From a virus, in the IMG/VR virus record IMGVR_UViG_3300026488_000019, positions 20,996 through 84,995 of that record: a stretch of DNA of 64,000 bases. One strand, 5' to 3'. Shown piece after piece: positions 3,469 to 64,000 of this stretch; positions within the stretch are counted from its first letter, which is position 1; each line of letters opens with the position of its first letter. A model generated the notes under the pieces. The model saw nothing but the letters and a program-made list of their open reading frames with translations. It ran no database searches and was not told where the DNA came from. A program made the position numbers and the translations under genes.

Positions 3469-4013
3469 CTCTTAACCCAAGTAGCTGTAGAAGTTTTAAC
3501 ATAGAAGTCTCCTGCTACATCCCATACAACATCTTTAACTGATTTAATGTAAATAGTTCCATCCTTCTCAATCCTAATTTTTGAACCAGATGAATGATGG
3601 AACTCTACATACTCCTTAGCTTTATTTATCTTAAACCAATTATTCTTCTTATCCCTAAACCCATAAGTTTCAGGGTAGTCTTCATCAAATAAATGTTGAT
3701 GGGTAGGAGTTGACTGGATTTCCCCTATGTAGTAAGGGTTATAAATAGAATCTTCAAACTTAACTATTACATAAGAACCTTTCTCTGGAACTGAAAAGTT
3801 AGAGGAATCAGACCTAGCTCCTAACAGGTTTGGTCTAATAGGATGAACAAAAGGTAAGTGTTTAGCTGGGATACCTTTCCATAAAGGTTTTATCATTACC
3901 TTTATCCTCCCCAACTGGAGAGGGTCTGCGTTTCAGATAACCTCGCCTACCCACAACTTACTTGTTATGTCAAATTTTTCATCTTTCAAAGTATCAGCTA
4001 ATGCTATTATCAT
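3465..4013 (-). CDS. Baseplate central spike, gp5 OB-fold type, with in-frame UGA
   Basis: The ATG at 4013 overlaps the end of the hub gene. The frame reads MIIALADTLKDEKF ... LWVGEVI, meets TGA at 3935-3933 (codon 27), and continues in the same frame as NADPLQLGRIKVMI to the stop at 3465. Both sides of the TGA belong to one domain: gp5/gpV spikes have a G-x-V-x(3-4)-DPL-x-LGR-x-x-V block, so the conserved block spans the stop codon. After the OB fold comes a beta region (EFHHSSGSKIRIEKDGTIYI), the start of a spike helix. Full length would be 182 residues. A fallback is initiation at TTG 3914 or ATG 3896, but that would cut into the OB fold. Confidence 0.7.
3906..3935 (-). promoter_or_regulatory. 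UGA codon with downstream hairpin in the spike gene
   Basis: TGA occupies 3935-3933. After nine bases, CCTCTCC (3923-3917) can pair with GGGGAGG (3912-3906), one G-U pair included, closing an AGTT loop. The loop begins 16 bases after the UGA and has G as its second base. The 3' arm also contains a GGAGG ribosome site, so the same bases could serve reinitiation at ATG 3896. Confidence 0.5.
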
Positions 4014-5178
4014 TTTTCTTCCTCCACTTGGGGAAGGTTATATTAAGAGCTTCCCTATTCAGAGTTAAATCTGTTACAATGGATTTAGCTGTAAAATACC
4101 TACAAATCTTAGTTATGATGTAGCTTCCTGTATATAGGTCGTAAAAGTGCTTTTGTTTAGAGTCTATGTCAAACAACTTCAAGTGGTCTAAAACTTGATG
4201 TTTTATAAACCTACCAGTATATCTTATGTTTACTTCCAGTCTTGAAAAGTGCATTAAGTTAGAAAGATTCTTAGATTTAGCATAAACCCAATGCTTATGA
4301 ACATTGGAAAAATCTACTTTTACATAATCCTTTAATCTCAGATGTTCTATATCGTAAATGGTTTTATTATCAGGAACTAATGAGTAGGAAAGTTTATTAC
4401 TGGGTACAATAGGTTTACAGCAGAGCTTATTTTCAGTCTCATTATAACCAGCTATCTTCTTGGTTGATAACTTATTGATAAAACCAGTCCTTGAGGTTAC
4501 TTTTATGTCTCCTTCAAAAATGAAATCCCTAGAGCCTAACTTTTCCTTTCTAGGGAAAGCATTCCAAGGTTCTTGTCCTACTATATAAGGTAAGGATAAA
4601 CATCTAAATCTTCCAAAACTCGTAATTCCTATTAAGTAAAACTCTTCTTCAGATATATAAGAGTTGAGCCAAAGTTCATTTATAAACTTTCTGTTAGGAA
4701 TGTTATACTGAATCCAAGTCATTTTATCCCTAGAACTAGGGAGGACTTGAACTCAGGCAAAATCTTCTTTGGCTACCCTTTCTATAACATAGGAGGAAGG
4801 TTTATCTTCAAAATACCTTATTTTGGATTTATATAGGTAATCAGGCTTTCGTAAAATACCTGATAAAACTACTTCAAAGGTTTCACCAGTTTTGGAATAC
4901 TCCTTTTCTAAAACTAACAGTTTAGTAGTAATAGATTTGGTTTCAGTTTGACCTACTGTTACTATTATTTCAGTTTCCTCAGCTAACCACTTCAACAACT
5001 TTAAGTCGTCTGTTACAAACCTTAACTGAAACTCAGGTAAGTGGTTACCTGTTTTCTCTATTAGTAAGAAGTCTATAAAATTTTCTCTGTTTATAAAGTC
5101 GTGTTTTTCTATCGTTCCATCTTTCCTTCTTATTACAATAGTAAAAAGTAAATACTGCTGGTTTTCATACTTTACCAT
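3994..5178 (-). CDS. Baseplate hub protein, T4 gp27-like, with in-frame UGA
   Basis: Two open frames are in the same phase: residues 1-141 (5178-4756), then TGA at 4755-4753, then VQVLPSSRDK and MTWIQYNIPNRKF to the stop at 3994. Read through, the product is 394 residues, almost exactly T4 gp27 (391). SSRDKMTWIQ-NI-FI-ELW-SYI looks like the hub's conserved block and straddles the downstream ATG at 4722, so translation of the codons before that ATG seems needed. The gene lies between gp53-like and spike genes, the right place for the hub that holds the spike. Alternatives are two separate polypeptides or a nonsense mutation. Confidence 0.65.
4728..4755 (-). promoter_or_regulatory. UGA codon with downstream hairpin in the hub gene
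   Basis: TGA is at 4755-4753. Eleven bases later CCCTA (4741-4737) pairs with TAGGG (4732-4728) around a GTTC loop. The loop starts 16 bases after the UGA, the same distance as in the spike gene, and its first base is G. The stem is only 5 bp, so on its own this would be weak evidence. Confidence 0.45.
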
Positions 5179-14943: not shown

Positions 14944-14970
14944 AACCTAACCTCCTTTATTACTGAAAAT

Positions 14971-14994
14971 GGGAGAGGGTTAGTACCCTCTCCC
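14971..14994 (-). terminator. Hairpin terminator after the major capsid gene
   Basis: GGGAGAGGGT pairs perfectly with ACCCTCTCCC around a 4-base loop, and on the minus strand is followed by ATTTTC. It begins nine bases after the capsid stop. A strong hairpin with a short U-rich tail here would end or attenuate capsid transcripts, leaving less message for the downstream operon. Confidence 0.65.
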
Positions 14995-15002
14995 TATATC
15001 AA

Positions 15003-17680
15003 TTAAGCATTCTTAACTTCAAGCTTACCTACAAACTGAGGAACAATTACCTCTACTCCAGCCCATACAGCAACAGCCCTCTGGTTTGTTAGTGGGTTAG
15101 GGGAAAGTGGAATGAGGTCTGTAGTGGTGAGAGGCATATAAGGAGCATAAACTGCAGCACCTTCAAATGGATTATCAGGATTATAAATTCCTAATGCTAC
15201 ATTAGCAGGTAGTGCATTAGCATCATTAACCCTAATAACAGTTACTCCATCAAGAGTACCAAATACATGAGCACCCATTGCCTTACCATCAGCTATCTTC
15301 TCAAATCCAGGGAGAGTTGAAAGGATGGATGCTACCTTAGCACCTGCTATGATAACATTAATAACTCCTCTACCTGCATTCTGAACAATAGAACCTTCAA
15401 GGTCTGCAAGTGCGTCCTTAACTGTTTGCTTCATCACCTTCAGCAGGGATCGCTACTCCCCACCCGTCTTACCAGGAGGTTCTATGTAATCTTTATACTT
15501 TCTAAGATAAGTTTTCCAAGTAGGATAAGAATTGGGATAATATTCTTTCCTCACTCTTTCATAATTTTCTTCAGTACAGGGAAGAGAAAGTTCATTAAGC
15601 TTATCCAGAATCTTAACTATCATTCTAATGGTTCTTTGTCTCAGACCTTCTTCAGTATGAACTTTCATTCCTTTAGTAATTCTTATTAAACCTTTAGCTA
15701 ACTTCTCCTTTCTAGTTTTAACTCTCTTCTCAATTGCCTCTTTAGGCATCTTCCTACCTTTAAGCTTCTCACTAATCTTCCTCTTGGTCTCCTCGCTATG
15801 TCTCCTTCCTCTGGACTTTTCACCTATTTTTCTCCTAGTTTCCTCGCTCCACTTTCTACCCCAATTAGGATGCTCAGGCCCTCTTGGGTAATACCTACTT
15901 CCTATCTTCTTTCTAGTTTCTTCATCAAATTTTCTTCCAAATCTCTTCTTCCTTATTTCAGAGGGTAACCCTTCTCCTGAAACTCCATCACCACCAGGAG
16001 TAAGGTTATGTAGAGGGCCTTGCCCTAACTCATACCTTCCTATGGTAGCTATTAGTTCTTTTTCTTTCTCTAACGCTTCCTCTTCTGTTAAACCTGAAAA
16101 TACTTCCAAAATAATAGGTTCAAGTCCAGCATTCCAAATAGCTTTAATTTGGTTATTTTTAGGGTGCTTAATACCCTTCCTCGCTTCATCCAAATGAGCA
16201 AACTTTCTCTTCCCTGTACCCTTACCTACATAGAAAGGTTCATAATCAAACTCATACTTACCATACTTGAACTTTCCAGGATAACGAGGGTCTAGGTAAA
16301 CATATACATAGAACCTTCTGGCAGACCGCCCAGAGGTTTCCCTCTGGGATGGGACTATATCACCACTCTGGGGCATTTTATTAACCTCCTAAAGCAGGAT
16401 ATATGATTATTATAACCTATAACCCCAGAGTGCCCCCCATTTCGTCCTCGCTTGAGGACTACTCCAGGGCAGGAATCCAAAATAGGATTCCTGTTTATCC
16501 CCTTGGATAGTCTCTGAACCTTCCCCATAGGTATCATAAGATACCTTTAGGGGCTTGGCTGCGGGTTGCCCATTTCAGGAGTTTTACTCCCTCATCCCTT
16601 AGCTTTTTACCATACCCACAGGCTTGCGACCTGTGGCCCTCACTAAGGTTTCCCTTAGTGAGTTGGTACTAAGGGCTTTAGGGCTTTCCCGCAATTAGGG
16701 GGGTTTAACGAGCACTAGCAAAACTAATGCTCAAAATAGCTTACTCCATCTGGAGGAGTTTTGTCCCAATTAATAGTTCCACCAGCAGGATTAGCATTCA
16801 TCTTCCTGATAAGGTCACCACCAATCTCATTGTTAATAGCTACAACCAGGTCTTTAGCTAGTTCATCTTCAGCTACAATTCCAAACCTTTGCCTGAGAGC
16901 ATAAGATTGGAGAAGTCCTACTACTCCTTTAAGAGCATAAATCCTAGCTGTAACAGGTACAGATTCAAATACAGAACCAATGCTAGGTAGGTCTGCTTGA
17001 GCTTCTACATCAAGCTGATATCCAACTACAATAGGAGTTCCATTAGCAGGAGCATCAGCAAAGTGGAGTTCTACTGTACCAGTTTTGTAGTCAATAGAAC
17101 CCCAAACTCCTACTCCAAGGATTACTCCATTACCATCATCCTTACCGTAAACCTTTCCAGCTTTAACTTGGAAAGTTTCAGGTCTTACAGGAACAGGTTC
17201 AATTGTTACTGTGAAGTCTTTAGTAGTACCGTCTCCAGTAGCTACTTCTTTATCTGAAACTACATTAGAAGCAAGTCCACTAGGAAGAACTGCTCCAGTT
17301 CTAGGGTCAATAATAGTATCTCCTGTGTCTTGCCTCTTGATTACTTTGAAGTAAACATTTCCACGCTCTTCTTCAATGTTCTGTACACTAGCTATGAAAG
17401 GAATAACAGAGTTACCATAAGCTACTGTGATAACATCAAAAGCTACTTTGGGAAGAGCTCCTAGTGAGCTAAGTCCATCTTCCTTAACAGTAGCTTCTAG
17501 CATTTCCCACTTTTCAAGCTCTTTCCCAAGCTGAACTACATCCCAAGCTTGTACTCCTTTAAGCTTACCAAGAATAGTATGATCTTCAAGAGTTTCTACC
17601 TGCTCACGATATCTTTTAAAGTAGTTCTCTGCCTGTGCTTCTACTTCCCTAAGCTTCTTTTCAATAATGAGTTCGCTCAT
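15003..17680 (-). CDS. Major capsid protein, T4 gp23-like, split by a group I intron
   Basis: Exon 1 is 17680-16727 (318 codons, ends GVSYFEH) and exon 2 is 15431-15003 (142 residues, begins KQTVKDALADLEGS). Joined, they give about 460 residues. Exon 2 has the gp23 C-terminal signature: GRGVINVIIAGAKVASIL, DGVTVIRVNDA, AAVYAPYMPLTTTDL. Exon 1 carries the N-terminal arm and beta domain (SELIIEKKLREVEAQAENYF, GVWGSIDYKTGTVEL). The splice points are my prediction: 5' exon ends in U after CAT, and the 3' exon follows the G of ATG at 15434-15432. The gene has AAGGAGG upstream and follows protease-scaffold, as in T4 (21-22-23). Confidence 0.85.
15432..16726 (-). ncRNA. Group I self-splicing intron in the capsid gene
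   Basis: Conserved core elements are readable on the minus strand in the expected order: AATTGCGGGAAA (16696-16685), GGCAACCCGCAGCCAAG (complement of about 16570-16554), GTTCAGAGACTATCC (about 16519-16505) and GATATAGTCC (16361-16352), corresponding to the P, Q, R and S core elements. GACTA of R can pair with TAGTC of S as P7. The stem CCAGAGG/CCTCTGG follows at 16330-16349. The intron is 1295 bases and carries a GIY-YIG endonuclease gene. Exact ends are inferred from the protein alignment pattern. Confidence 0.85.
15453..16376 (-). CDS. GIY-YIG homing endonuclease inside the capsid intron
   Basis: 307 residues. The catalytic domain starts at about residue 21: FYVYVYLDPRYPG (GIY strand), PFYVGKGTGKRKFAHLDE (YIG strand with Arg), and LTEEEALEKEKELIATIGRY holding the catalytic Glu. 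After HNLTPGGDG come three NUMOD3-type DNA-binding repeats ending EETRKKIG, EETRRKIGEKS and EETKRKISEKLKG, then a basic C-terminal domain. The first ~20 codons overlap the S strand of intron P7 and the next stem, so expression may be tied to intron folding. It promotes spread of the intron into intronless capsid genes. Confidence 0.85.
   Translation of the reverse strand: MPQSGDIVPSQRETSGRSARRFYVYVYLDPRYPGKFKYGKYEFDYEPFYVGKGTGKRKFAHLDEARKGIKHPKNNQIKAIWNAGLEPIILEVFSGLTEEEALEKEKELIATIGRYELGQGPLHNLTPGGDGVSGEGLPSEIRKKRFGRKFDEETRKKIGSRYYPRGPEHPNWGRKWSEETRRKIGEKSRGRRHSEETKRKISEKLKGRKMPKEAIEKRVKTRKEKLAKGLIRITKGMKVHTEEGLRQRTIRMIVKILDKLNELSLPCTEENYERVRKEYYPNSYPTWKTYLRKYKDYIEPPGKTGGE
16727..17680 (-). 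other. Exon 1 of the major capsid gene
   Basis: 318 codons encoding the N-terminal two thirds of the capsid protein. If unspliced, translation ends at TAG 16726-16724, the first codon of the intron, giving a truncated subunit. Exon 2 is 15431-15003. Confidence 0.75.
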
Positions 17681-17724
17681 ATTAATCCTCCTTTGTGTAA
17701 TTTAATTTGAGTTGAAGTGAGTTT

Positions 17725-17750
17725 AACTAACCTGATAGTGCAGGTTAGTT
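17725..17750 (-). promoter_or_regulatory. Perfect 10-bp hairpin between protease-scaffold and capsid genes
   Basis: AACTAACCTG pairs with CAGGTTAGTT around a 6-base loop, starting at the protease stop codon. No U-tract follows on the minus strand, so it is more likely an RNA processing, stability or attenuation element than a simple terminator. It lies 45 bases upstream of the capsid ATG. Confidence 0.55.
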
Positions 17751-20095: not shown

Positions 20096-21355
20096 TTATA
20101 GGTTAGTCAATCCCCACTTATAACCATAGTCTTGTTTAATTGGTTTTGGACAAGAGCCTACAAAATCAAAGAAGTCCTGAGTTGATTTTACTGATAAAGC
20201 TATGTAAGGGAATTTCTTTTTGGTTTTGTATTCAGTTCCAGTTCTTAAATATGCTTTTAATCCAAGTTTATTAAGTTGTTCTACCAAAAAGTTAACCTCT
20301 TCAAAAGTAAAACAATTGGTAGCAAAATGGATGAAAGGTTTACCTTTTGATGGTTTAATTAGACTCCCATCACCAATATACCAATGAAGAACAACTGTTG
20401 GAGTAAGTTTTAAATCTTTTGGTATTATCTTCTTTCCATTCCGATACCATCTATGATATTGCTCTGTTAAACAAGGATATTTTCTTGTAGAAAAATAAAA
20501 TGCTATACTACCAGGTTTAAATCCTTTTTCATTGACCTTTTCATAAATTTTACCACACTCCAAACCTTCATCAATAAACTGTTGTCTTAGCCACTCTATA
20601 TAATTCTTGTGTTTATCAGTATGCTGATAACAAGAATTAGAGTTTAAAGATTTTGGTTTAGCTAAAGACCCATCTCCAAGTAATAACCCATCCAAAACTT
20701 GCTTAAAATAATCTGAAAGTTGGTGATAAAAGTTAGAAACGGAAGAATTAGCTTCATTTACATTCCTTATAGGAATATTATACTTCTTTAATAAATTAGA
20801 AACAGTTTTATAATGAATTCCTAACTCCTTTGCAATTTCTTTTATTGACTTCTTTTTAATTACATATTCTTGATATAACCACTCTCTTCCAATAGCGGGT
20901 TTAAACTTTTCTCTTGATACAAAACCAAATTTATCAAACCAATATTTAACTGAAGAAGGATCTACATCACATTCTTCAGCAATTTGTTTTATAGATTTTT
21001 CTTTAACATAATACTCATTATAAAGCCATTCTTTATTAGTGTACTTTCCTTTCTTATGCCATCTTCTTATTGGTATTCCAAATTTCTTTAACCACTTTAA
21101 TATAACAGTTTCAGAAACCCCTAATTCTTCTGCTATCTGAATAGTTGATTTTCCTAACTTTACATATTGTTCCTCTAACCATTCTTTGTTTTGATAAAGT
21201 TTCTCTGGATAACCTAATCCAAATTTTCTTGCCCACTTCTCAATAGTATCTCTATTAACTCCTAACTCTTTCGCCACTTGAATTCTTGATTTACCTTTTA
21301 CAATTAATTCATTATACAACCAATCTCTATTCCTGTAAGGTTTATTCTTAAACAT
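20096..21355 (-). CDS. Free-standing LAGLIDADG homing endonuclease with four HTH repeats
   Basis: 419 residues. Four tandem units of about 45 residues, each like WL-x-x-x-(Y/L)-(I/V)-K-x-KS-x-x-(Q/E)-(I/V)-A-x-E-L-G-V, form helix-turn-helix modules (residues 7-195). The C-terminal half carries two LAGLIDADG-type motifs, LDGLLLGDGSLAKP and LHWYIGDGSLIKP, spaced as in a single-chain enzyme. The ATG overlaps the stop of the SWIM-like gene (TAATG). There is no sign of an intron around it. It probably cuts a nearby site in related phages lacking it. Codon use is more A-rich than neighbours, suggesting separate origin. Confidence 0.85.
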   Translation of the reverse strand: MFKNKPYRNRDWLYNELIVKGKSRIQVAKELGVNRDTIEKWARKFGLGYPEKLYQNKEWLEEQYVKLGKSTIQIAEELGVSETVILKWLKKFGIPIRRWHKKGKYTNKEWLYNEYYVKEKSIKQIAEECDVDPSSVKYWFDKFGFVSREKFKPAIGREWLYQEYVIKKKSIKEIAKELGIHYKTVSNLLKKYNIPIRNVNEANSSVSNFYHQLSDYFKQVLDGLLLGDGSLAKPKSLNSNSCYQHTDKHKNYIEWLRQQFIDEGLECGKIYEKVNEKGFKPGSIAFYFSTRKYPCLTEQYHRWYRNGKKIIPKDLKLTPTVVLHWYIGDGSLIKPSKGKPFIHFATNCFTFEEVNFLVEQLNKLGLKAYLRTGTEYKTKKKFPYIALSVKSTQDFFDFVGSCPKPIKQDYGYKWGLTNL

Positions 21356-26190: not shown

Positions 26191-28056
26191 TTAGTCAAGA
26201 TAACTACCCCAAAACAGTTGAGTTAGAGTTTGGTTTTGTTGAGAGGTATTACCTACTTCTGCTTTATGAATCCTTTGGAAAGCTAACTGTTTGATTAAAT
26301 CTTTATTAGTTACTAAATTCCAGTAAACTCCTACTACTGCATCAGCACCATCCTTACTACCTTTAGTTCCATCAGGAAACTCTTGAGGGTGGTCTATCTT
26401 CTTACCTACATCCTCTACATGCAATAGCTCTTTAATCAGTAAGTCGTGTTTAGGTATCCAAACTCTTTCTTCATATATAGCATCTCTGAAGGAGAGGTAA
26501 GGATCTTTAGTTCTATCTACTGATAAAAGAGCTGTTTTATAACCCATCTGGGTTAACTGTTGCCTCATATCCTCAGACTGGAATCCATCAGTGGTCACCA
26601 TTGCTATTGGGTAACCTAATCTAGAAAGATCTACTATAAACTGCCTTATCTTATAGAATGGGATCCTCTCCCCTGGAAGAGGTTCTAGGTAGGCTACGAA
26701 GTCTATAACTACTTCTGGTTCAGAAAAGGTATGCTTTTCTAAGGTTAGTGGATCAACTCTTTCTATTGTTTTGTAGCCTTTTATGTAACCTGAAGCTATA
26801 CCTGTTCTGTCTCCTGTTATGGAAAGGTCTATATGGATAACTCTAGGAGACTCTTTAAAGAGTGGGTTCTTTAGGTAGTTTATGTTGAAGTAGTTAATTA
26901 AGACATCTGATTTGTCGTTAAAGGAAAGTCTAATTATCTGTTGGTTAACAGGGTTAGTAACAGAGGCTTGTTTTATGAGTATGTTTTTAGTTTTGAATAT
27001 CCTGTGGGTTGAACCTACTGAATAACCAGCTAAATCTCTTATGGCATTGTGTAAGTCTAACTCAAATTTATCCTTTAGCTCTATTGGAACATCTATTACC
27101 TTAGACTCATCTATGTATTGTAGCTGGGATTCATCTTCTATTATGAATGGATCAGTAGTTTCATCTCCTATGAATACTTTGAAAGTTTTACCTGAGTAGA
27201 TGCCTAAGTGCTTTTTAACTTCCCATATAGGGTATTGGAAGATTATTACTCCTTGCTTACCTCTTACCTTTTCTGCATGCTGGGAAACGAAATCAGTAGG
27301 AGATTTCTCTGAAGAAACTAAGCAAAGGTGTCCTGGAAGCTTACCTCCAGCTTGAGCAAATCTAGATTCCATTCTTCTTAGGAGTGCATTGTAAGACTCT
27401 TGAGCTTGGTTAGATATTACATCAAAGTTAGCTTCGTCTAGTATTCCGCCAAATACAGCCATACCAAGGGTATGAGTAAATCTTGAACCTGCTACTATAC
27501 CTATGTTGTTAACAAACCTGATTTCTGATGTTTTCTTGTTCTCAGCATCTAAGTGTTCTTGGAAGAACTCTGAGTTAGCTATTAAGTTTTTGAAAGGCTC
27601 ATATAAAACCTGATCAGCTAGTCCTAGTGTAGCGTTGAAGAGAGCTATTACTATTCTATCAGTAGGAATTAAGTTAAACTTTTTATGAGGGTTTTCCAAT
27701 AGGAGAAGTTTGTAAAGGTCGTAAAGTGTTATAACCCTTGCTATTGAACTCTTACCAACCCCTATCGCACCTCGCAAGATGCACTCATAATAAGGAGAAT
27801 AAAATGGGTTAGGAAAGATTGTTTTTAGAGCTTCTTTCCATACTGGGTATATCTTACCTCCTAAAGAAAGGCCTAAATACTTAGGATGTTCTATAAATGT
27901 TATTATGTCAACTGGAACTTCTTTATAACCTTCTAATTCAGCATATAGTTGGAATAAAGATTGAGGGTCATTTTGGAACTTCTCTATTAGCTTCTTTAGT
28001 ATAGACCTCTCTTTAGGAGGTAAGGTTTTTAGTTTATTGATTAGTTGGTTTAGCAT
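26191..28056 (-). CDS. terL: Terminase large subunit (packaging ATPase/nuclease)
   Basis: 621 residues. ATPase: Walker A ILRGAIGVGKSS (residues about 93-104), Walker B VFGGILDEANF (about 201-211), and motif III-like CLVSSEKSPTD. Nuclease half: VIHIDLSITGDRTGIA, MVTTDGFQSEDMRQQL and KDGADAVVGVYWN contain the RNase H-like acidic residues. Length equals T4 gp17 (610). It is preceded by a structured element and a candidate small subunit. Pumps DNA into proheads through the portal. Confidence 0.9.
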   Translation of the reverse strand: MLNQLINKLKTLPPKERSILKKLIEKFQNDPQSLFQLYAELEGYKEVPVDIITFIEHPKYLGLSLGGKIYPVWKEALKTIFPNPFYSPYYECILRGAIGVGKSSIARVITLYDLYKLLLLENPHKKFNLIPTDRIVIALFNATLGLADQVLYEPFKNLIANSEFFQEHLDAENKKTSEIRFVNNIGIVAGSRFTHTLGMAVFGGILDEANFDVISNQAQESYNALLRRMESRFAQAGGKLPGHLCLVSSEKSPTDFVSQHAEKVRGKQGVIIFQYPIWEVKKHLGIYSGKTFKVFIGDETTDPFIIEDESQLQYIDESKVIDVPIELKDKFELDLHNAIRDLAGYSVGSTHRIFKTKNILIKQASVTNPVNQQIIRLSFNDKSDVLINYFNINYLKNPLFKESPRVIHIDLSITGDRTGIASGYIKGYKTIERVDPLTLEKHTFSEPEVVIDFVAYLEPLPGERIPFYKIRQFIVDLSRLGYPIAMVTTDGFQSEDMRQQLTQMGYKTALLSVDRTKDPYLSFRDAIYEERVWIPKHDLLIKELLHVEDVGKKIDHPQEFPDGTKGSKDGADAVVGVYWNLVTNKDLIKQLAFQRIHKAEVGNTSQQNQTLTQLFWGSYLD

Positions 28057-28087
28057 TATTGAACTCTTTTTAGAGTGTTATGGATTT

Positions 28088-28164
28088 GCAAGGTAGGAGA
28101 AGGGAGGACTGGGACTCCCTTTAACCTGAGTGGCCAACTCAGGCTCTCCTACCTTGCCCCAGTC
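28088..28164 (-). ncRNA. Three-way junction with pseudoknot upstream of terL
   Basis: Perfect 13-bp outer stem: 28088-28100 with 28145-28157. Inside are two 6-bp hairpins, 28101-28120 (8-base loop) and 28125-28143 (7-base loop). Bases 28107-28113 of the first loop (GACTGGG) are the exact complement of 28158-28164 (CCCAGTC) just outside the outer stem, allowing a 7-bp pseudoknot. The second loop contains the self-complementary TGGCCA, able to kiss a second copy. Both strands can form it; leftward transcription favours the minus strand. It sits 32 bases before the terL ATG. Could be a packaging RNA, a pac-type DNA site, or a cis mRNA element. Confidence 0.65.
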
Positions 28165-28207: not shown

Positions 28208-28687
28208 CTATACTTCCAAGTGTTCTACTACTGAACTTAGTATTTCCTTTAAGGTGTTTCTAGTTTCTTGGTTTATTTCTAGTTGCTCTAGTATAGAAGA
28301 GTCTTCTTCAGTTTCTACTACTCTTAATTCTACTGATTGGGATAGCTTGGAAAGTTCTTTTAAGATTGGTACTAAGGATTTAAGATTATTGAATACTGAA
28401 TTATAGGCTTGAACTAATCCATTGTAGAACTCTACCTGTTCTATAAAGTTAGAGAAGTTAGCATTGGAAAGTAATTCATCCTCTAAGGTTTCTAATTTTT
28501 CTCCTAGTTTTATTAGACGAGACATATACTTTTTTATCATTAACCTTGTAAAAGAAGCTACTTCTAGTTTTAAAGAGTCTAAGTCTGGGTCTAATTTAAA
28601 GTCCTTAGAGTTACCTTCTAGGTAGTCTCTTAGAGAGGTTAGTTGTTTATCTAGTTCTGATTGAACCTTTATGTTAGGTTTTTTCAT
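28208..28687 (-). CDS. Small terminase subunit candidate
   Basis: 159 residues, nearly all helical with heptad-like spacing (SRLIKLGEKLETLEDELL, FNNLKSLVPILKELSKLS). Size and coiled-coil character match T4 gp16 (164), and it is directly upstream of terL. No HTH is obvious at the N-terminus. Candidate for the ring that recognises the packaging site; the structured element at 28088-28164 lies between the two genes. Confidence 0.4.
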   Translation of the reverse strand: MKKPNIKVQSELDKQLTSLRDYLEGNSKDFKLDPDLDSLKLEVASFTRLMIKKYMSRLIKLGEKLETLEDELLSNANFSNFIEQVEFYNGLVQAYNSVFNNLKSLVPILKELSKLSQSVELRVVETEEDSSILEQLEINQETRNTLKEILSSVVEHLEV

Positions 28688-28714: not shown

Positions 28715-28741
28715 AGGGTAGAGGGTTGTTTCCTCTACCCT
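28715..28741 (-). terminator. Hairpin terminator upstream of the terminase unit
   Basis: AGGGTAGAGG pairs with CCTCTACCCT (10 bp) around a 7-base loop. On the minus strand it is followed by a CT-rich tail (CTCTTTC). It would end leftward transcripts coming from the nrd/nuclease unit before the terminase genes. Confidence 0.5.
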
Positions 28742-31864: not shown

Positions 31865-34800
31865 TTAATTAGCACAACTTACACACTCTTCTTTAGTTTG
31901 TTTTCCCTCTGCTTTAGCTACTATTCTAGCGTAATAAAGAGCTTTTATTTTACTCTTCCAAGCTTTATAAATAAATTGACCTAATATCCTACCTACTTCT
32001 TCTTTTGGAATAAAGCCATCTCTTATGTTAACTGGGTAATCAAAGGAAATCCCTGAGTCTATATACTTTTGGATAAACGAAACTATCTCTATTACATCGT
32101 ATAAGTCCTGCTCAGTAAACTTTGAGTACTCATCATAATAGAACCAACCTTCTGTGATATATCTAGGGAATACTACATAAACTCCAGTAGACTGCTTTTC
32201 AGTCTGAATAAGGTTGAATGGAGGGGAAATGCTCGCAGTAGTTCCTGCGTAGATAGATGTAGAAGTATTAGGAGGAGCATTTAACAGCATTGTATTCCTG
32301 ATACCATATTTCTGAATATCTTCTATCAACTCATCAACTTCACCCCTATCTACATCAAATTCAACAGTAGTAGAAACTTCAAAACCTTCTCCATAAGGAA
32401 TTTGACCTAAGAATACTTCATCCCACTTGGTTTCACTATACTTATTTGCCCTACCTCTCTCTTTAGCTAAATCTACGCTAGCTCTTATAGAATAAAATGC
32501 TATCCTACCAAATATCTGCTTAAGCAAGTTGAACAACTCATCTTTGTTAACATTTCTACTAGTTAACCTGTAAGCGTATAACTTACCATTATCTATTGAC
32601 TTCCTAACGAGCAAATCTGCTAGTCCCACAAAACCTATTCCTAAAGTTCTGTAATCCTGATTGTGCTTTTTAATCTCATAGATAGGATGACCTGCTATAT
32701 CAAGAATGTTGTCCATATACCTAACTACTAACCTCATCAAAGAACTTAATTTCTGATTATCCTGTAAATAACCTAGCTCATACAAAACTGGTAAATTAAG
32801 GGAAAGAAGATTGCAAGAATGTACATAACCTAAATCTTCTATCTTTTCATCAGGTTTCTTACCTTCAGGGTTTGAGTTAGAAAATGGGGAATAAGACTCA
32901 ACACAATTACCAGTCAGAACTCCATTTAAAATACCTCTATTTAATTTCGGCTCAAAAAAGCAATAACTATCAGAAACAAAACCATCAAGTTTTCTTATTG
33001 ACTTAACTCTTACAAATTGGCTTGCCTCTCTATTTGGAACTTTTCTACCTTTCAAATCTAATCTCTTAGGATTGAAACCAAGCTCAATTAACTTTGCTAA
33101 GTTATACGCTGAAATTAATATACGCTTTGTCTCTTTACAATAATAATCTTTATAACCACCTTTACCATCTGGCATACTACGATAACCAGCTTCACAACCA
33201 TCAACTATCTTAGATTGAATACCTAATGTATCTAACATTCTTTTTACATTTAGCAAGAATTCAAAATTAATAGAAGACAATTGGAGTGTGTAAGTATTAC
33301 CATTCCTCACTACTGTACCATCACCATCAAATAATCCCTCAAGCCATCTTATCCTACTCTCAACAGTATAACTGCTATCAGGAACAAAAAACTTATCTTT
33401 CAGTACCCCTTTCTTATAATAGACATCTATGCGATTAATTTTCTTATTACTGTATGTTCTATAATATCCACTCAAATAATCAATTAACTTTCGCTTCTTA
33501 TCGTATAAGTAAATACAATCTACACCATCATAAGCAGTACCTTCTGCTGTAAATAATCCATTTTCATATGCATACTCAAGTATTTTATAACCTTCTATAA
33601 CAGGCAAATTCCATTTTTCTAAAACATCTCCTTCAGAGAGCTCAAAAGTTCTTTTAACTTTCGTTTTACTATGATAAGGTCTTGCTTTATCTCCTCTAAC
33701 ATACCACCTATGATAGTCTGTTACAATAATTTTTTCACCGTTAGTAAATTCTATCTCATACCAATCACTATAATTATCCCCTGTCTTAAATATTGCTGAT
33801 TTACTCCATTCTACACCATTCCAAACTTCAAGAATCTGCCCTGCCACTTTTTTTATCTCAATATAACCGTATTCTTTGGTAAGGATTCTGGTATCAGGAG
33901 CTACACAAAGGTTCCCACACTTAATTTGCTCCTTAAAAGGAGAATACTGATTTACTGTGTCTACAAAGAAGAGATAAGGCATTCCTGATGCCAATATGTT
34001 CTTTATCAGTTGCCTATAAATCTCCCTAGCTTTATAAACTTTACCTCTTACCTTTCCTTGCTTAACTAACTCTTCTGCTTTCATATAATTTTCTTCAAAC
34101 TCCTCCCCCCAACAGTTTACCAAGTCAATACCATACTTCATCTTCAACTCATAGTGATCTATAAGTGTCCAATCTTTATTTTCTTTAACTTTTTCCATAA
34201 ATAAGTCTGGAATTACTACTTGAGGATATAAAGAAAACATTTTCATACGAATTTCACCGATAGGATTACGCATAGCCATAAAGTCCAATATATCCATATG
34301 CCATATAGGGAGGGCTACTGTCCCAGCTCCTTTGCGTTTTCCAAGCTGATCTACTGTATCTAACATATCGTCAAGTATTTTACACCACTTTAATATTGAT
34401 ACTGATTTACCTTTATTTCCTTGTATATAACTTCCATTAGGCCTTATCTCTCCAAGATAAATACCTAACCCTCCTCCTCTTTTACTAATCTCTGCAACTT
34501 GCCAAAATGAATACATAATACTTTCAAGGTTATCGTGAATATCAAGGATATTACAAGATGATAAATTACCTTTAGCTCTTCTAAGGTTAGAAAGTTGAGG
34601 GGTAGCTGGAATTATTGTTCTATCAAGTAATAGCTTGTAAAACTTTTTAACATTATCTATAAATAGCTCTTTATTCTGTTTATAGTCTGGAAGAAAACCA
34701 AGAATGGAAATCAAAAGGAGAGCTTCGGCAAAAGTTTCTATTGGTCTATTATTGTAAGTCAAAATATATGATTTTGAAAATTTTACTACCTGATAGTAAA

Positions 34801-35305
34801 AGTCATTCCACATAAAATAAGGAAAGTTATAATTATAATCTAACTGAACCTTTTTAGCATACTCATAGAGTTCTTCAAGAATGTCATTAGAGATTTTGAG
34901 TATTCTCTCATCATAAATACCTAATTCTATATACTTTTTTAAGTGAAAAATCCAATCGTTAGCATTTTGAAAAAACCCATAATCATCAGTAAAAGTGTCA
35001 TACTCCCTTTCTCTATGTAATCTTATGTCTTTTATCCAATCTAATAAATAAAACCTACCTGCTAGAATAGAATAGTCCTTAATTCTACCTTTATCTGATA
35101 TTGAAAGCTTATTAGCAGTAGCTATTAAATTCTGTTGAATTTCTTTGGTAGTAATACCAGACTTAAGAGTAAAGCGAAATTCTTTCCAAAATTGCTCATC
35201 ATCTATATTTAGACCTTGCCTGCAAAAGTTATACATCTTAATAATCTTATCCATACTGAAAGGTTCTTTATGACCGTCTCTCTTTACAACTTCAATTCCT
35301 ATCAT
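31865..35305 (-). CDS. nrdA: Ribonucleotide reductase large subunit (class I alpha) with intein
   Basis: 1146 residues before splicing, about 812 after. N-terminal ATP-cone (VVKRDGHKEPFSMDKIIKMY). Active-site Cys: CNILDIHDN (Cys251), the thiyl-radical Cys801 in NL-CVES, and Cys in SCNLLSLNLPVL. C-terminal ECVSCAN supplies the CxxC thiols that re-reduce the enzyme. The intein (residues 467-800) sits directly before the catalytic radical Cys. Reduces ribonucleotides with the nrdB product. The start overlaps thyX by 4 bases, forming a thymidylate/dNTP operon. Confidence 0.9.
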   Translation of the reverse strand: MIGIEVVKRDGHKEPFSMDKIIKMYNFCRQGLNIDDEQFWKEFRFTLKSGITTKEIQQNLIATANKLSISDKGRIKDYSILAGRFYLLDWIKDIRLHREREYDTFTDDYGFFQNANDWIFHLKKYIELGIYDERILKISNDILEELYEYAKKVQLDYNYNFPYFMWNDFYYQVVKFSKSYILTYNNRPIETFAEALLLISILGFLPDYKQNKELFIDNVKKFYKLLLDRTIIPATPQLSNLRRAKGNLSSCNILDIHDNLESIMYSFWQVAEISKRGGGLGIYLGEIRPNGSYIQGNKGKSVSILKWCKILDDMLDTVDQLGKRKGAGTVALPIWHMDILDFMAMRNPIGEIRMKMFSLYPQVVIPDLFMEKVKENKDWTLIDHYELKMKYGIDLVNCWGEEFEENYMKAEELVKQGKVRGKVYKAREIYRQLIKNILASGMPYLFFVDTVNQYSPFKEQIKCGNLCVAPDTRILTKEYGYIEIKKVAGQILEVWNGVEWSKSAIFKTGDNYSDWYEIEFTNGEKIIVTDYHRWYVRGDKARPYHSKTKVKRTFELSEGDVLEKWNLPVIEGYKILEYAYENGLFTAEGTAYDGVDCIYLYDKKRKLIDYLSGYYRTYSNKKINRIDVYYKKGVLKDKFFVPDSSYTVESRIRWLEGLFDGDGTVVRNGNTYTLQLSSINFEFLLNVKRMLDTLGIQSKIVDGCEAGYRSMPDGKGGYKDYYCKETKRILISAYNLAKLIELGFNPKRLDLKGRKVPNREASQFVRVKSIRKLDGFVSDSYCFFEPKLNRGILNGVLTGNCVESYSPFSNSNPEGKKPDEKIEDLGYVHSCNLLSLNLPVLYELGYLQDNQKLSSLMRLVVRYMDNILDIAGHPIYEIKKHNQDYRTLGIGFVGLADLLVRKSIDNGKLYAYRLTSRNVNKDELFNLLKQIFGRIAFYSIRASVDLAKERGRANKYSETKWDEVFLGQIPYGEGFEVSTTVEFDVDRGEVDELIEDIQKYGIRNTMLLNAPPNTSTSIYAGTTASISPPFNLIQTEKQSTGVYVVFPRYITEGWFYYDEYSKFTEQDLYDVIEIVSFIQKYIDSGISFDYPVNIRDGFIPKEEVGRILGQFIYKAWKSKIKALYYARIVAKAEGKQTKEECVSCAN
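32906..33907 (-). mobile_element. Intein with LAGLIDADG endonuclease in NrdA
   Basis: 334 residues, Cys467 to Asn800. Block A CVAPDTRILTKEYGYIEI, block B-like YEIEFTNGEKIIVTDYHRWY, two LAGLIDADG motifs (ENGLFTAEGT and WLEGLFDGDGTVVR), block F SVSDSYCFFEP-type region and block G GILNGVLTGN followed by extein Cys801. All splice residues are present (Cys1, penultimate Gly in GN, Cys+1). In block G the residue before Asn is Gly rather than His, a known variant that can slow splicing. It probably still homes. Confidence 0.85.
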
Positions 35306-51217: not shown

Positions 51218-51269
51218 AGGACATCTGCTAACAGTTAGTTTTTATTAGTAATAGTTAGCAGATGTCCTT
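51217..51269. repeat. 16-bp inverted repeat at the 3' end of tnpB
   Basis: AAGGACATCTGCTAAC (51217-51232) and GTTAGCAGATGTCCTT (51254-51269) are perfect complements with a 21-base loop that includes the tnpB stop. On the tnpB strand it is a strong hairpin at the end of the message, where TnpB guide RNA scaffolds and IS200/IS605 right ends lie. It may also end the rightward transcript. Confidence 0.6.
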
Positions 51270-52671
51270 CGCTACTACCATTTAGGTAGTAAGACTTACT
51301 ATCCCTTATTCCCTTTAAAAGGGAACTCAGGGAATACTTTCTAAACAAGTTTATCCTGACTGGGTTACAAAGTTTACTTAACCAGTTTCTTAACTTTAGG
51401 AAACTTTTTCTAACATTTTTACCTAATGCTTTGATAGCAATGTTTAAAGCTCCATTTAAGTCAGCATTAAAGACCTTATTGAGTTTCAGGTCTTTGAAAA
51501 GACCTCTTTTGATTCGTTTACCGTTGAGTTGTAATCCCTTTAAATCTTGCTCAGTAATCTTATCTTTAGCTTTATCTTTTATAATCTCTATGTTACCAGA
51601 GATTGAAGATGTCTTGGAAGTATAACTTTCGTCAACTATCTTAAACTTGATACCTGCTAATTCACATTTGTATTTCAAGGTATTAATTAGCTTACCAAAA
51701 GGGATACTTCTAAAAGTTTGATTGAACTTTTTACCTTTATTCCCTTTTCTCTGATACTCTTCAGTCAGAGATTTTGATATTACTATTGTTCCTATTCCTT
51801 CTTGTAAACATAGGCTAATGAGGAAGTTAGCTACTGAGCTGAAGAAATGCTTTAATCGTTTATTCCTGTAATTCCACAATAACTTATGCTCTCTTTCTTT
51901 TCCTTCTGATTGTAATTTGGCTGAGAGCTTGTTTACCCATTGGTTAAAGGATTTGACTGGGTTACCATCAATTATGAAAGATCTAATGTTTTCTTTGTTG
52001 GAAATAACTGTTAGTAAGTTCTTGATTCCTAAGTCAATTGATAGGAAGTAGCTTTTATTGAGGTTAACCTTTTCAACATCAACTTCATAGTTGATTAGAA
52101 ACTCTACATCCTGATCTTTATTCCATCTGATTTTGAGATGTCCACTAAAGTTTAAGGATTTAGGAATTTTGATTCTAACTGCACCAAAAGCTTTTCCAAT
52201 TCTTACTACTATGTGATTGGACTTCTTTTTGCTTTTAAGTTTTCTCTTATCAACTACCATATTTGGATTGGTTTCAATGGTAAAGGAGTAAAGAGAGTCT
52301 AATTTCTTAGGAGTTGGTAAATTGGCTTTCTGGTTTAATTTCCATAAAGAAAGAACTGCCTTATACTCCCTTGCTATTACATTGATTAGCATTTTAACAG
52401 TATCACTCCCTATTTTCTCTTGCCATAGTTGTCTAAGTTCTTCTTTCCATTTCTTGATGGATTCATTCTCGTAAGGTAGTTCAACTTCACATTTAACAAA
52501 CTTCCCAAGGAAACTAACTTGGGTAAAAGGTTTAATATCTCTGGTATTAGCAAAATATTCAATAGCACAAAGGTAGAGGAGGTTCTTGAAATGTTGAAAT
52601 GTTTTGGAAGCCTTTTCCAGTTTATTTATAACACTTCTTTTCTTTGACTTAATGCTTAGTGTTAGTAACAA
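51235..52671 (-). CDS. tnpB: TnpB-like RNA-guided nuclease (IS605 OrfB family), zinc-less
   Basis: 478 residues from TTG 52671 with GAGGTG five bases upstream; the longer frame to 52749 lacks support. RuvC motifs: FLSIDLGIKNLLTVI (Asp), VDESYTSKTSS (Glu), and FNADLNGALNIA (Asp). The usual CxxC...CxxC zinc finger between the last two is absent (SSISGN in place of the Cys pair). Upstream TTGGAA-17-TATAAC looks like a host-type promoter. No tnpA is nearby, so it is a TnpB-only element on the strand opposite to the surrounding genes. Confidence 0.8.
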   Translation of the reverse strand: MLLTLSIKSKKRSVINKLEKASKTFQHFKNLLYLCAIEYFANTRDIKPFTQVSFLGKFVKCEVELPYENESIKKWKEELRQLWQEKIGSDTVKMLINVIAREYKAVLSLWKLNQKANLPTPKKLDSLYSFTIETNPNMVVDKRKLKSKKKSNHIVVRIGKAFGAVRIKIPKSLNFSGHLKIRWNKDQDVEFLINYEVDVEKVNLNKSYFLSIDLGIKNLLTVISNKENIRSFIIDGNPVKSFNQWVNKLSAKLQSEGKEREHKLLWNYRNKRLKHFFSSVANFLISLCLQEGIGTIVISKSLTEEYQRKGNKGKKFNQTFRSIPFGKLINTLKYKCELAGIKFKIVDESYTSKTSSISGNIEIIKDKAKDKITEQDLKGLQLNGKRIKRGLFKDLKLNKVFNADLNGALNIAIKALGKNVRKSFLKLRNWLSKLCNPVRINLFRKYSLSSLLKGIRDSKSYYLNGSSEGHLLTITNKN

Positions 52672-52788
52672 TCTTTCACCTCTATATGAGGTTATAATAT
52701 ATTGTAGTTCTAATTCCAAGAAAAGGCAAGTATTAAAGGAATATATCAAAATGTTTTAAAAGTTAAAACAGTTGAAGAGGAGGATTAG

Positions 52789-53178: not shown

Positions 53179-53383
53179 GTATGAATTGGAAGTACTTTGC
53201 TATGGTAGGAGTAGAGAAAGGGTTTGATTCACTTGATAACCAAGTTGTTTATCGTATTTTTGTTAGCAACGATTTTGAAAAAAGTTCTGAAGTAGTTGGA
53301 GTAGGAGATGGTTATGATGTTATTAATGAAGTTTCTTTTGTTCCAAGATCAGTAGGAAAGATTAAAGGGAAAGAGTTTATCTT

Positions 53384-54900
53384 TTGCGGGTGGGAAGACC
53401 CCTTCCGTAAGGGAGGGGATGAAAGCCCGCAGGTAAATACCTTGAAATTAAATAATTATAGGTATAAATTATAACTATGGAGATGAAAAGAGCAATAGTT
53501 TTTGAATTAAACAATTTAACAGAAGAACAGCAGATAATACTTGGACACCTCACCTACCATGCTGGAAAGCTCTGGAATCAAGCAAACTACCTCGTAAAGA
53601 ACAGATTAGCAAAACCAGATTACAGAGACCTATACAACAAACTCAAAGACATATCCTTGCACCTACGCTCCTTACAGTCCCGCTCTGCTCAGATAGTCCT
53701 TGACGAACTGTCAAGAGGATGGAAGAACTTTTTCAAGTTTTTAGAAAGTCCTGAAAAATTCAAAAAGAAAGGAGTAAAAACGGTTAAACCACCAAACTAT
53801 GTAAGTTCTAAAATTCCTCACAGAGTAGTAACTTGGGACAAAACAGGATTCAAGGTTGAAGGAAGTAGGATAAGACTCTCACTTTCAAAGAGCTTGAAAG
53901 AGTATTTACTCAAAAAGTTTGGATTTTCCCCTAAATACCTGTGGATAGAAACGAGGTATAAAGGTTTAGAAAAGTTTAAAGTTCTCAATGTTCAAGTAGT
54001 TCCATATAAAGCCTACGGTCATATAAGCTTTAAGCTAGTAGTAGTGTATGAGAAAGAAGTTCCTAAAGTTGAAGCTAAAGGAGACAAGGTATTAGCGATA
54101 GACTACGGAATTTCAAACTTTGCGACCTGTGTAATAGAAGGGAATCCAATTTCCTACATCATAGATGGAAGAGGATTAAAGACTTTACTCAGGAGGAAGC
54201 TCAAAAAGATAGCTAACCTGCAAAGAAGGCTGGACAATCTTAAGAATAAAGGGCTACCAACTGTTCAAGTAGAAAAGAAGCTCCACAGGCTTTGGAAGAG
54301 CGTAAAGAACTTATTGAGGGACTACGCTCACAAAGTTAGCAACCTAATAAAAGAACTTGCACTCAGGAACAAAGTAAAGACGGTAGTAATAGGAAATGTC
54401 CAAGAGTCAAAGAACAAAGAGAGCAACTTACCTGACCTTGTGAATCAGATGTTCAAGCTATTACCTCATGGGAAAGTAACAGAATTCCTAACCTACAAGC
54501 TCAGAGAAGTGGGAATAGAGGTTAAGCTGATAGACGAGAGCTATACTTCCGTTACTGACTCTTGTGACAGTAAAGCAGGAGTAACAAAAGAAAGCAAAGG
54601 TAACGGAAGGAGGGTAAAGAGAGGACTATTCCTATCCCCATTTAAAGGATTCATCAATGCAGATGTCAATGGGGCGAGGAATATTTTAAGGAAGTTCAAG
54701 AAGAAGTGGTTTGACCTTGTAACGGGACTCAAAAAAGTGGTCAAGATAAGAATCTACAAGTTAAGCAAAGGTATCTCCGAGTCCCTGCTTTTTGCAGGGA
54801 TAGGAGTAGAGGGTGGCGTGAACCCGCCCAGAGGGATAAGGGTAGGGATAACCTACCAAACTCCCTCAGAAGCTCCGTCCGTAAGGGCGGAGTAGTTCAC
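53384..54900 (+). mobile_element. TnpB-only IS200/IS605-type (IS1341-like) element
   Basis: 1517 bp. The left end (from TTGCGGGTGGG) holds an imperfect GCGGG...CCCGC stem enclosing CCCCTTCCGTAAGGGAGGGG. The right end has the hairpin CTCCGTCCGTAAGGGCGGAG followed by TAGTTCAC, a typical IS605-family right end. One tnpB, no transposase. No target duplication is expected in this family. Ends inferred from restoring the interrupted frame; the left end could be off by a base or two. Confidence 0.8.
53477..54895 (+). CDS. tnpB: TnpB-like RNA-guided nuclease in the insertion element
   Basis: 472 residues. RuvC motifs: VLAIDYGISNFATCVIEG (Asp), LIDESYTSVTDSCDS (Glu), and INADVNGARNILRKF (Asp). As in the other copy, a complete zinc finger is missing (only one Cys pair region, DSCDSKAG). 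The two TnpB proteins share the motif plan but little else, so they belong to distinct lineages. The last ~30 codons run into the right-end hairpin. A TTGAAA/TATAAA promoter-like pair lies just upstream. The guide RNA would start in the 3' end, with the guide from 54901 onward. Confidence 0.85.
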   Translation: MEMKRAIVFELNNLTEEQQIILGHLTYHAGKLWNQANYLVKNRLAKPDYRDLYNKLKDISLHLRSLQSRSAQIVLDELSRGWKNFFKFLESPEKFKKKGVKTVKPPNYVSSKIPHRVVTWDKTGFKVEGSRIRLSLSKSLKEYLLKKFGFSPKYLWIETRYKGLEKFKVLNVQVVPYKAYGHISFKLVVVYEKEVPKVEAKGDKVLAIDYGISNFATCVIEGNPISYIIDGRGLKTLLRRKLKKIANLQRRLDNLKNKGLPTVQVEKKLHRLWKSVKNLLRDYAHKVSNLIKELALRNKVKTVVIGNVQESKNKESNLPDLVNQMFKLLPHGKVTEFLTYKLREVGIEVKLIDESYTSVTDSCDSKAGVTKESKGNGRRVKRGLFLSPFKGFINADVNGARNILRKFKKKWFDLVTGLKKVVKIRIYKLSKGISESLLFAGIGVEGGVNPPRGIRVGITYQTPSEAPSVRAE

Positions 54901-63806: not shown

Positions 63807-64000
63807 TGAAAGTTCTTTATTATTCTGATATTCATTTTAGGGAGAAAGGGTCATTTATTCCTTGGAATAGGCTAGAGAATCGCTTCACAAAGGAGTTAAA
63901 TCGTATCTTAAATTCAATGTACTGGTTATCAGAGATTGTAGAGGTTGAAAAACCTGATTTATTACTTTGCTTAGGAGATATATTCAACAATTTGGTAATC
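63806..64000 (+). CDS. SbcD / T4 gp47-like recombination nuclease (partial, runs off the right edge)
   Basis: 65 residues visible from ATG 63806. KVLYYSDIHF and DLLLCLGDIFNNL carry the first two metallophosphoesterase motifs (SDIH, GD) as in SbcD/Mre11/gp47. Directly downstream one would expect an SbcC/gp46 ATPase. Phage use: processing DNA ends for recombination-dependent replication. Confidence 0.6.
   Translation, partial: MKVLYYSDIHFREKGSFIPWNRLENRFTKELNRILNSMYWLSEIVEVEKPDLLLCLGDIFNNLVI

What the first reader, a model, noticed from the sequence alone, without database searches (positions are those of the whole stretch)
28088..28164. Three-way-junction RNA with a pseudoknot just before the large terminase
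A 13-bp perfect stem encloses two 6-bp hairpins. The loop of one (GACTGGG) is the exact complement of the seven bases right outside the stem, and the other loop carries self-complementary TGGCCA that could join two copies. Multiple independent perfect complementarities in 77 bases are far beyond chance. Phi29-type pRNA is a three-way junction that assembles by loop-loop contacts, so a packaging RNA is an attractive analogy. A pac-type DNA cruciform, a processing site or a cis mRNA element would also fit.
Basis: partly seen in the sequence, partly recalled or inferred. Interest (0 to 1): 0.85.

Follow-up and report, generated by a model that had tools for sequence, protein, structure and literature searches.

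The report
Conserved pseudoknotted RNA before phage terminase
Between two genes of a heat-loving bacterial virus's DNA-packaging machine lies a 77-letter stretch whose RNA folds into a compact three-armed shape kept in three related viruses by matched mutations; it is most likely a control element of the messenger RNA, not a copy of the famous phi29 packaging RNA.

Summary
At 28088-28164 a 13-bp stem encloses a 7-bp and a 6-bp hairpin, and one loop is exactly complementary to the 7 nt outside the stem. It is the most stable 77-nt fold of the window. No comparable arrangement arose in 40 simulated windows. Genes here run on the minus strand, so the RNA is read there, ending 31 nt before the terL start codon.

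Two related phage contigs carry it at the same place. Changes keep it paired: P1 A-U, G.U, G-C across the three; P3 G-C to U.G; pseudoknot A-U to G-C, gap-placement dependent (joint chance 6e-5). It diverges 3-10 times less than four-fold sites. L003 (86% TerL) and several distant relatives lack it; in most, terS abuts terL. So it was probably gained within this clade.

Rfam has no match. Two phi29-pRNA hallmarks fail: the loop pair and a gp16-type ATPase beside it. Best reading: a cis-acting intercistronic leader that uncouples terL from terS and shapes its translation or mRNA stability. Mechanism is inferred. Only three members are known, and an in-trans or dimeric RNA is not excluded.

The parts
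28088..28164 (-). whole structured RNA element (77 nt): three-way junction plus pseudoknot
   Evidence: conserved in L002 4895-4970 and L005 3164-3239
28158..28164 (-). PK 5' strand GACUGGG, pairs with the P3 loop; AGCUGGG in L005
   Evidence: exact complement of 28107-28113; L005 keeps 6 pairs with a change on each side
28145..28157 (-). P1 5' strand GCAAGGUAGGAGA
   Evidence: 13 bp perfect with 28088-28100; pair 11-74 A-U/G.U/G-C in window/L002/L005
28125..28143 (-). P2 hairpin CCUGAGU-UGGCC-ACUCAGG with palindromic UGGCCA in the loop region
   Evidence: fold; UGGCCA unchanged in all three, closing U-A lost in L005
28101..28120 (-). P3 hairpin AGGGAG-UCCCAGUC-CUCCCU
   Evidence: fold; closing pair G-C to U.G in L005
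28107..28113 (-). PK 3' strand CCCAGUC inside the P3 loop
28088..28100 (-). P1 3' strand UCUCCUACCUUGC
28057..28087 (-). 31-nt unstructured A-rich leader with weak Shine-Dalgarno-like AAGAG, up to the terL ATG
   Evidence: 30/30 aligned positions identical (plus one 1-nt gap) to L002, and 29/31 to L005
26191..28056 (-). terL, large terminase (621 aa)
   Evidence: PHROG 9 and 17415 terminase large subunit; ~40% identical to annotated phage TerL
28208..28687 (-). 159-aa helical protein in the terS position (putative small terminase)
   Evidence: no family match; same place next to terL in Rhizobium, Maribacter and Acinetobacter phages; low-confidence all-helical model

Best explanation
It is a cis-acting structured RNA in the late polycistronic mRNA (minus strand), inserted between terS and terL in one clade of thermophilic myophages. 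The RNA folds into P1 (13 bp) carrying P2 and P3, and the P3 loop pairs with the 7 nt just 5' of P1. In the relatives without it the terS stop touches the terL start, so terL is probably read by translational coupling. Here the folded block followed by a 31-nt open leader with its own weak ribosome-binding site breaks that coupling, so TerL output is set separately, most likely through access of ribosomes to the leader and protection or processing of the terL mRNA 5' end. Shown: the element, its conservation, matched changes in P1 and P3 and (with one gap placement) the pseudoknot, its fixed distance to terL (30-31 nt), and its absence in the outgroup. Inferred: that it is transcribed with the operon, that it acts in cis, and every step of the mechanism.
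For: Location on the coding strand, with spacing to terL fixed at 31/30/31 nt while the distance to the upstream stop varies (43/43/28 nt). Compensated changes in P1 and P3, plus a pseudoknot restored after change on both sides: joint chance 6e-5 under random placement; sliding the partners abolishes pairing and covariation. Divergence 1/77 (L002) and 7-8/77 (L005) against 14% and 25% at four-fold sites in terS. TerL adjacency without element: L003 (3 bp), L199 8 bp, L200 overlap, L201 2 bp, L207 and L211. The leader downstream is as conserved as the element. It stays folded to 85-90 C in the nearest-neighbour model. Other gaps ahead of genes in this operon also hold a hairpin just 5' of a ribosome-binding site (terS, capsid-region genes).
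Against: No expression or probing data. Three sequences only; the column-shuffle control on them is not significant (114/500) because n = 3. The pseudoknot's double change depends on where a one-base gap is placed in L005. Strand choice rests on gene direction and one mid-helix G.U. No ligand, protein or alternative fold that would make it a switch was found.
Confidence: 0.45

Rival explanations
1. RNA-processing or stability site: the RNA is cut by RNase III (P1 and P2 could stack to about 20 bp) or blocks an exonuclease, so that terL and downstream genes travel on a message with a protected structured 5' end.
For: Long near-continuous helix; intercistronic place like the T7 RNase III sites (own knowledge); hairpins 5' of other genes of this operon. 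Overlaps with the best explanation.
Against: An RNase III site needs no pseudoknot and no conserved loops, yet loop and flank changes are matched.
Confidence: 0.2
2. Trans-acting small RNA that serves DNA packaging (works like phi29 pRNA), multimerising through UGGCCA and/or the pseudoknot strands in trans.
For: Three-way junction next to a terminase; self-complementary UGGCCA loop unchanged in all three; with zero-length linkers the pseudoknot might form between molecules rather than within one.
Against: Not an Rfam pRNA; standard TerL; relatives with 86% identical TerL lack it anywhere in the 58.8 kb held; no conserved promoter-length stretch 5' of it, where only 28 nt separate it from the terS stop in L005.
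Confidence: 0.1
3. Processive antitermination RNA (works like HK022 put or the Bacillus EAR element) near the start of the structural-gene operon.
For: Size (~77 nt; put is ~70 nt, PMC9378689), compact fold, near the start of a long late operon, with a terminator-like hairpin just 5' of terS (28741-28715).
Against: No Rfam EAR/put similarity; it lies after, not before, that hairpin; terminator-like sites downstream are not above chance; lineage-specific although the operon is shared.
Confidence: 0.1
4. DNA packaging signal (pac/cos-like) or cruciform at the terS-terL border, with the RNA fold a by-product.
For: pac sites often lie in or near terS (own knowledge); dyad symmetry.
Against: L002 keeps the stem by a G.U that is a mismatch in the other DNA strand; P1 and P3 changes keep pairing; the pseudoknot has no use in a duplex.
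Confidence: 0.1
5. Remnant of a mobile element (IS200/IS605-type hairpins) or chance structure.
For: Two TnpB genes in the genome; absence in the outgroup.
Against: Single copy per genome, same site in three phages, slow divergence with matched changes.
Confidence: 0.05

Closest known systems
phi29-type prohead/packaging RNA (Rfam Bacteriophage_pRNA)
   Same: three-way junction RNA encoded by a tailed phage; possible loop-based multimerisation
   Different: no model match; perfect 13-bp stem without the CCA bulge; loops not a left/right complementary pair; sits between terS and a large-terminase gene, with no gp16-type ATPase gene beside it; has a loop-to-5'-flank pseudoknot
HK022 putRNA / EAR processive antitermination RNAs
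   Same: compact ~70-nt structured RNA in a phage (put) or between early genes of a long operon (EAR, own knowledge)
   Different: no sequence or model similarity; put has two stem-loops and no enclosing P1; sits after the terminator-like hairpin
Three-way-junction pseudoknotted riboswitch-like leaders (for example THF or glutamine-type; own knowledge)
   Same: a junction with a loop-to-flank pseudoknot upstream of a start codon
   Different: no Rfam match; no expression platform or ligand; the target gene is a phage terminase
T7 intercistronic RNase III sites (own knowledge)
   Same: structured RNA between phage late genes
   Different: those are single imperfect hairpins; this is a junction with a pseudoknot

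Membership tests
phi29-type pRNA | matches the family covariance model | tested here: not met
   no hit at gathering score nor at E <= 10
phi29-type pRNA | three-way junction | tested here: met
phi29-type pRNA | complementary left and right loops for intermolecular pairing (all 12 new pRNAs, PMC12670572) | tested here: not met
   loops UGGCC(A) and UCCCAGUC share only UGG/CCA; the second loop pairs with the 5' flank instead
phi29-type pRNA | CCA-type bulge and ATP-binding G bulge in the stem (PMC12670572) | tested here: not met
   P1 is 13 bp with no bulge
phi29-type pRNA | gp16-like ATPase and gp10-like connector in the genome | tested here: inconclusive
   the adjacent motor gene is a PHROG large terminase; I did not scan every ORF of the record for gp16/gp10 homologues
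phi29-type pRNA | binds the packaging motor and is needed for packaging | not testable with these tools
   needs an experiment
putRNA / EAR antiterminators | family sequence and structure | tested here: not met
   put architecture from PMC9378689: two stem-loops, no enclosing stem
putRNA / EAR antiterminators | suppresses downstream termination in cis | not testable with these tools
   -
any Rfam family, including known riboswitches and self-cleaving ribozymes | score above the family's gathering threshold | tested here: not met
   the only Rfam hit in the window is a group I intron at 16330-16752
evolutionarily conserved structured RNA | matched substitutions that keep pairs | tested here: met
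   P1 and P3 double changes, pseudoknot restored, but only three sequences, and the shuffle control is not significant at this n
protein-coding ORF | open frame kept across relatives | tested here: not met
   a TTG frame after AGGAGAG is broken by a 1-nt deletion in L002 and TTG to CTG in L005

The most novel reading that the evidence does not exclude
A phage RNA, unrelated to phi29 pRNA, that serves a conventional ATPase-nuclease terminase: transcribed from the terS-terL border, folded into a heat-stable pseudoknotted junction, and bound by the terminase either as feedback control of TerL synthesis or as a multimeric part of the packaging complex.
Probability: 0.12. Interest if true: 0.9.

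Novelty: new variant of a known kind. Interest (0 to 1): 0.5.

Why it matters
Terminases other than phi29's are generally thought to work without RNA, and few structured RNAs are known in phages of thermophiles. A conserved pseudoknotted RNA fixed 31 nt upstream of terL gives a small, testable candidate for control of terminase levels at high temperature. If it binds the terminase it would open the question of RNA in ordinary packaging motors. It also shows an RNA element appearing at a tightly coupled gene border.

Tried and rejected
Rfam at gathering and at E <= 10: only chance-level hits. Pattern scans of IMG/VR with the PK+P1, P2, P3 and P3-P1 segments: apart from the two relatives, the other hits of the first three scans lack the structure; the fourth scan's four other hits were not screened. 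TerL and terS protein scans: only L002-L005 are close. blastn of the element in named phages and plasmids: none. CM search of the contigs of the window, L002-L005, of the distant TerL relatives, and of 136 genomes of the phylum of a Hydrogenothermaceae MAG: only the three known copies (no positive control in the last set). TerL in those genomes only 31-36% identical, in 6 of 136. TerL profile against the PDB: none. Coding explanation rejected (frameshift). Intrinsic terminator rejected (no T-run on either side). AlphaFold model of the terS-position protein: low confidence (pLDDT 63, pTM 0.25), so no fold search was made. Papers: no report of an RNA at terS-terL in the library searched. A ruler argument (P1 13 bp equals P3 6 + PK 7 bp, zero linkers) is compatible in length with a cis pseudoknot as two side-by-side stacks, but helical phase is not ideal, so cis or trans is left open.

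Full report
What is there. The window is part of an 84,995-bp IMG/VR virus record of a contractile-tailed phage (sheath protein). All structural genes near the element run on the minus strand. The 77-nt element 28088-28164 lies in the 151-nt gap between a 159-aa ORF (28208-28687) and terL (26191-28056). Read on the minus strand it is 5'-GACUGGG | GCAAGGUAGGAGA | G | CCUGAGU-UGGCC-ACUCAGG | UUAA | AGGGAG-U-CCCAGUC-CUCCCU | UCUCCUACCUUGC: pseudoknot strand, P1, P2 hairpin, P3 hairpin whose loop holds the pseudoknot partner, then P1 again. The fold has z = -5.0, is the most stable 77-nt window of the 64 kb at 75 C, and stays folded to about 85-90 C in the nearest-neighbour model. A descriptor of this arrangement occurs nowhere else in the window and 0 times in 40 simulated windows.

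Relatives. Scans with TerL found four close relatives. L002 (TerL 98%) and L005 (93%, with an intein) carry the element at the same place. L003 (86%) has 3 bp between the two genes and no copy in the 58.8 kb held. L004 starts inside terL. Distant relatives with 27-41% identical TerL, including named phages of Rhizobium, Maribacter, Acinetobacter, have no copy in the stretches searched; most have the small gene abutting or overlapping terL, a few have longer gaps. The element was therefore probably gained in the ancestor of window/L002/L005, between two genes whose protein ends did not change.

Covariation. Aligned, P1 pair 11-74 is A-U in the window, G.U in L002 and G-C in L005; P3 pair 50-59 is G-C and becomes U.G in L005; the pseudoknot GACUGGG/CCCAGUC becomes AGCUGGG/CCCAGC, i.e. 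A-U to G-C with the outermost pair lost. The last depends on the placement of a one-base gap; MAFFT's own placement reads it as a deletion plus a substitution that re-registers the pairing. With that stricter reading, two nested double-compensated pairs have chance 0.002, and jointly with a pseudoknot hit on both sides yet keeping at least 6 pairs 6e-5. With the other placement, three compensated pairs have chance 8.5e-5. Sliding the partners by 1-3 columns drops pairing from 98% to 41-56% and double changes to 0, but the column-shuffle control is not significant with three rows (114/500). So the structure is well supported for so few sequences, not proven. Pairs formed: 26/26+7/7 (window), 26/26+7/7 (L002), 25/26+6/7 (L005). 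The opposite strand does about as well in number (25 and 25 of 26); the one informative mid-helix case, the G.U of L002, favours the minus strand, in agreement with gene direction.

Constraint. Against L002 the element has 1 substitution and 1 indel in 77; against L005 7-8 substitutions and 1 indel. Four-fold sites in terS differ by 14% and 25%. The 31 nt between element and ATG are equally conserved (30/30 aligned positions plus a 1-nt gap, and 29/31); the 5' side is not (L005 19/28 with a 15-nt gap). Spacing to terL is 31/30/31 nt. Only the downstream side is fixed, which points to terL.

Host and setting. The best relatives found for a window TnpB are 58-61% identical proteins in Hydrogenothermaceae and Persephonella MAGs, so an Aquificota host is a reasonable guess. 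No RNA copy was found in 136 genomes of that phylum. No CRISPR spacer match was identified; one 20-kb piece was compared and its weak matches were not examined.

What it most likely does. The common arrangement is a terS stop touching the terL start (L003: GAGG just ahead of the stop and GTG), which suggests translational coupling. In this clade coupling is replaced by a stable folded block, a 31-nt open leader and a weak AAGAG ribosome site. The simplest account is a cis-acting intercistronic element that makes terL translation and/or the terL mRNA 5' end independent of terS. Other genes in this operon have simple hairpins just 5' of their ribosome-binding sites (28715-28741 before terS, 14964-15001, 17681-17748), so structured leaders seem to be a habit of this genome; the terL one is far more elaborate. 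Processing, antitermination, packaging-RNA and DNA-signal readings are listed as rivals.

What it is not. Rfam gives no family, including pRNA, riboswitches and ribozymes. Of the pRNA features in PMC12670572, the three-way junction is met, but the paired left/right loops and the stem bulges are not; gp16/gp10 partners were not exhaustively sought, but the adjacent motor gene is a conventional large terminase. It is not coding (a 1-nt deletion in L002 breaks the only plausible frame) and not a terminator (no U-run). In the library searched I found no paper describing an RNA at the terS-terL border.

Limits. Three sequences; IMG/VR and genome scans are spent; no RNA data. Whether the pseudoknot closes within one molecule is open: lengths match (P1 13 bp; P3 6 + PK 7 bp) but linkers are zero and helical phase is not ideal, so a domain-swapped dimer, perhaps helped by the UGGCCA loop, is a live alternative.

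Noticed in passing
window 28715-28741 (-); L002, L005, L003 upstream of the terS-position gene: A GC-rich hairpin sits just 5' of the terS-position ribosome-binding site in all four phages, with a different sequence in window/L002, L005 and L003 but the same position; it may be a terminator or a leader hairpin.
   Followed up: partly
window 17681-17748 (-): 68-nt leader of the 16724-17680 gene (capsid region) keeps 85-90% identity in all three relatives, higher than most intergenic DNA, and holds a 10-11-bp hairpin.
   Followed up: partly
window 16330-16752 (-): Group I intron (Rfam, 106 bits) in a capsid-region gene, with a GIY-YIG/NUMOD3 endonuclease ORF at 15453-16376.
   Followed up: no
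window 31865-35305 (-) and 20096-21355 (-): LAGLIDADG domain inside the ribonucleotide reductase large subunit (probable intein) and a free LAGLIDADG protein with repeated HTH-like motifs.
   Followed up: no
L005 3271-6557: terL of L005 is interrupted after residue ~102 (Walker A region) by an insert that looks like an intein and has its own ORF (3668-4642) inside.
   Followed up: no
window 51235-52749 (-) and 53477-54895 (+): Two different TnpB-type (OrfB_IS605) genes; very stable folds at about 53355-53460 and 54797-54900 flank the second, as expected for element ends or a guide RNA.
   Followed up: no
window 63924-64000; L267 1-77; L271 8679-8755: The last 77 nt of the window's record are identical to both ends of IMGVR_UViG_3300026488_000001, which suggests that contig is a circular assembly with a 77-nt overlap and that both contigs break at a shared k-mer inside an SbcD-like gene.
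   Followed up: partly
L107 4001-5776 and L111 4001-5803: Large terminase genes of two distant relatives are read through by 10 in-frame TAG and 3 in-frame TGA codons respectively, consistent with stop-codon recoding.
   Followed up: no
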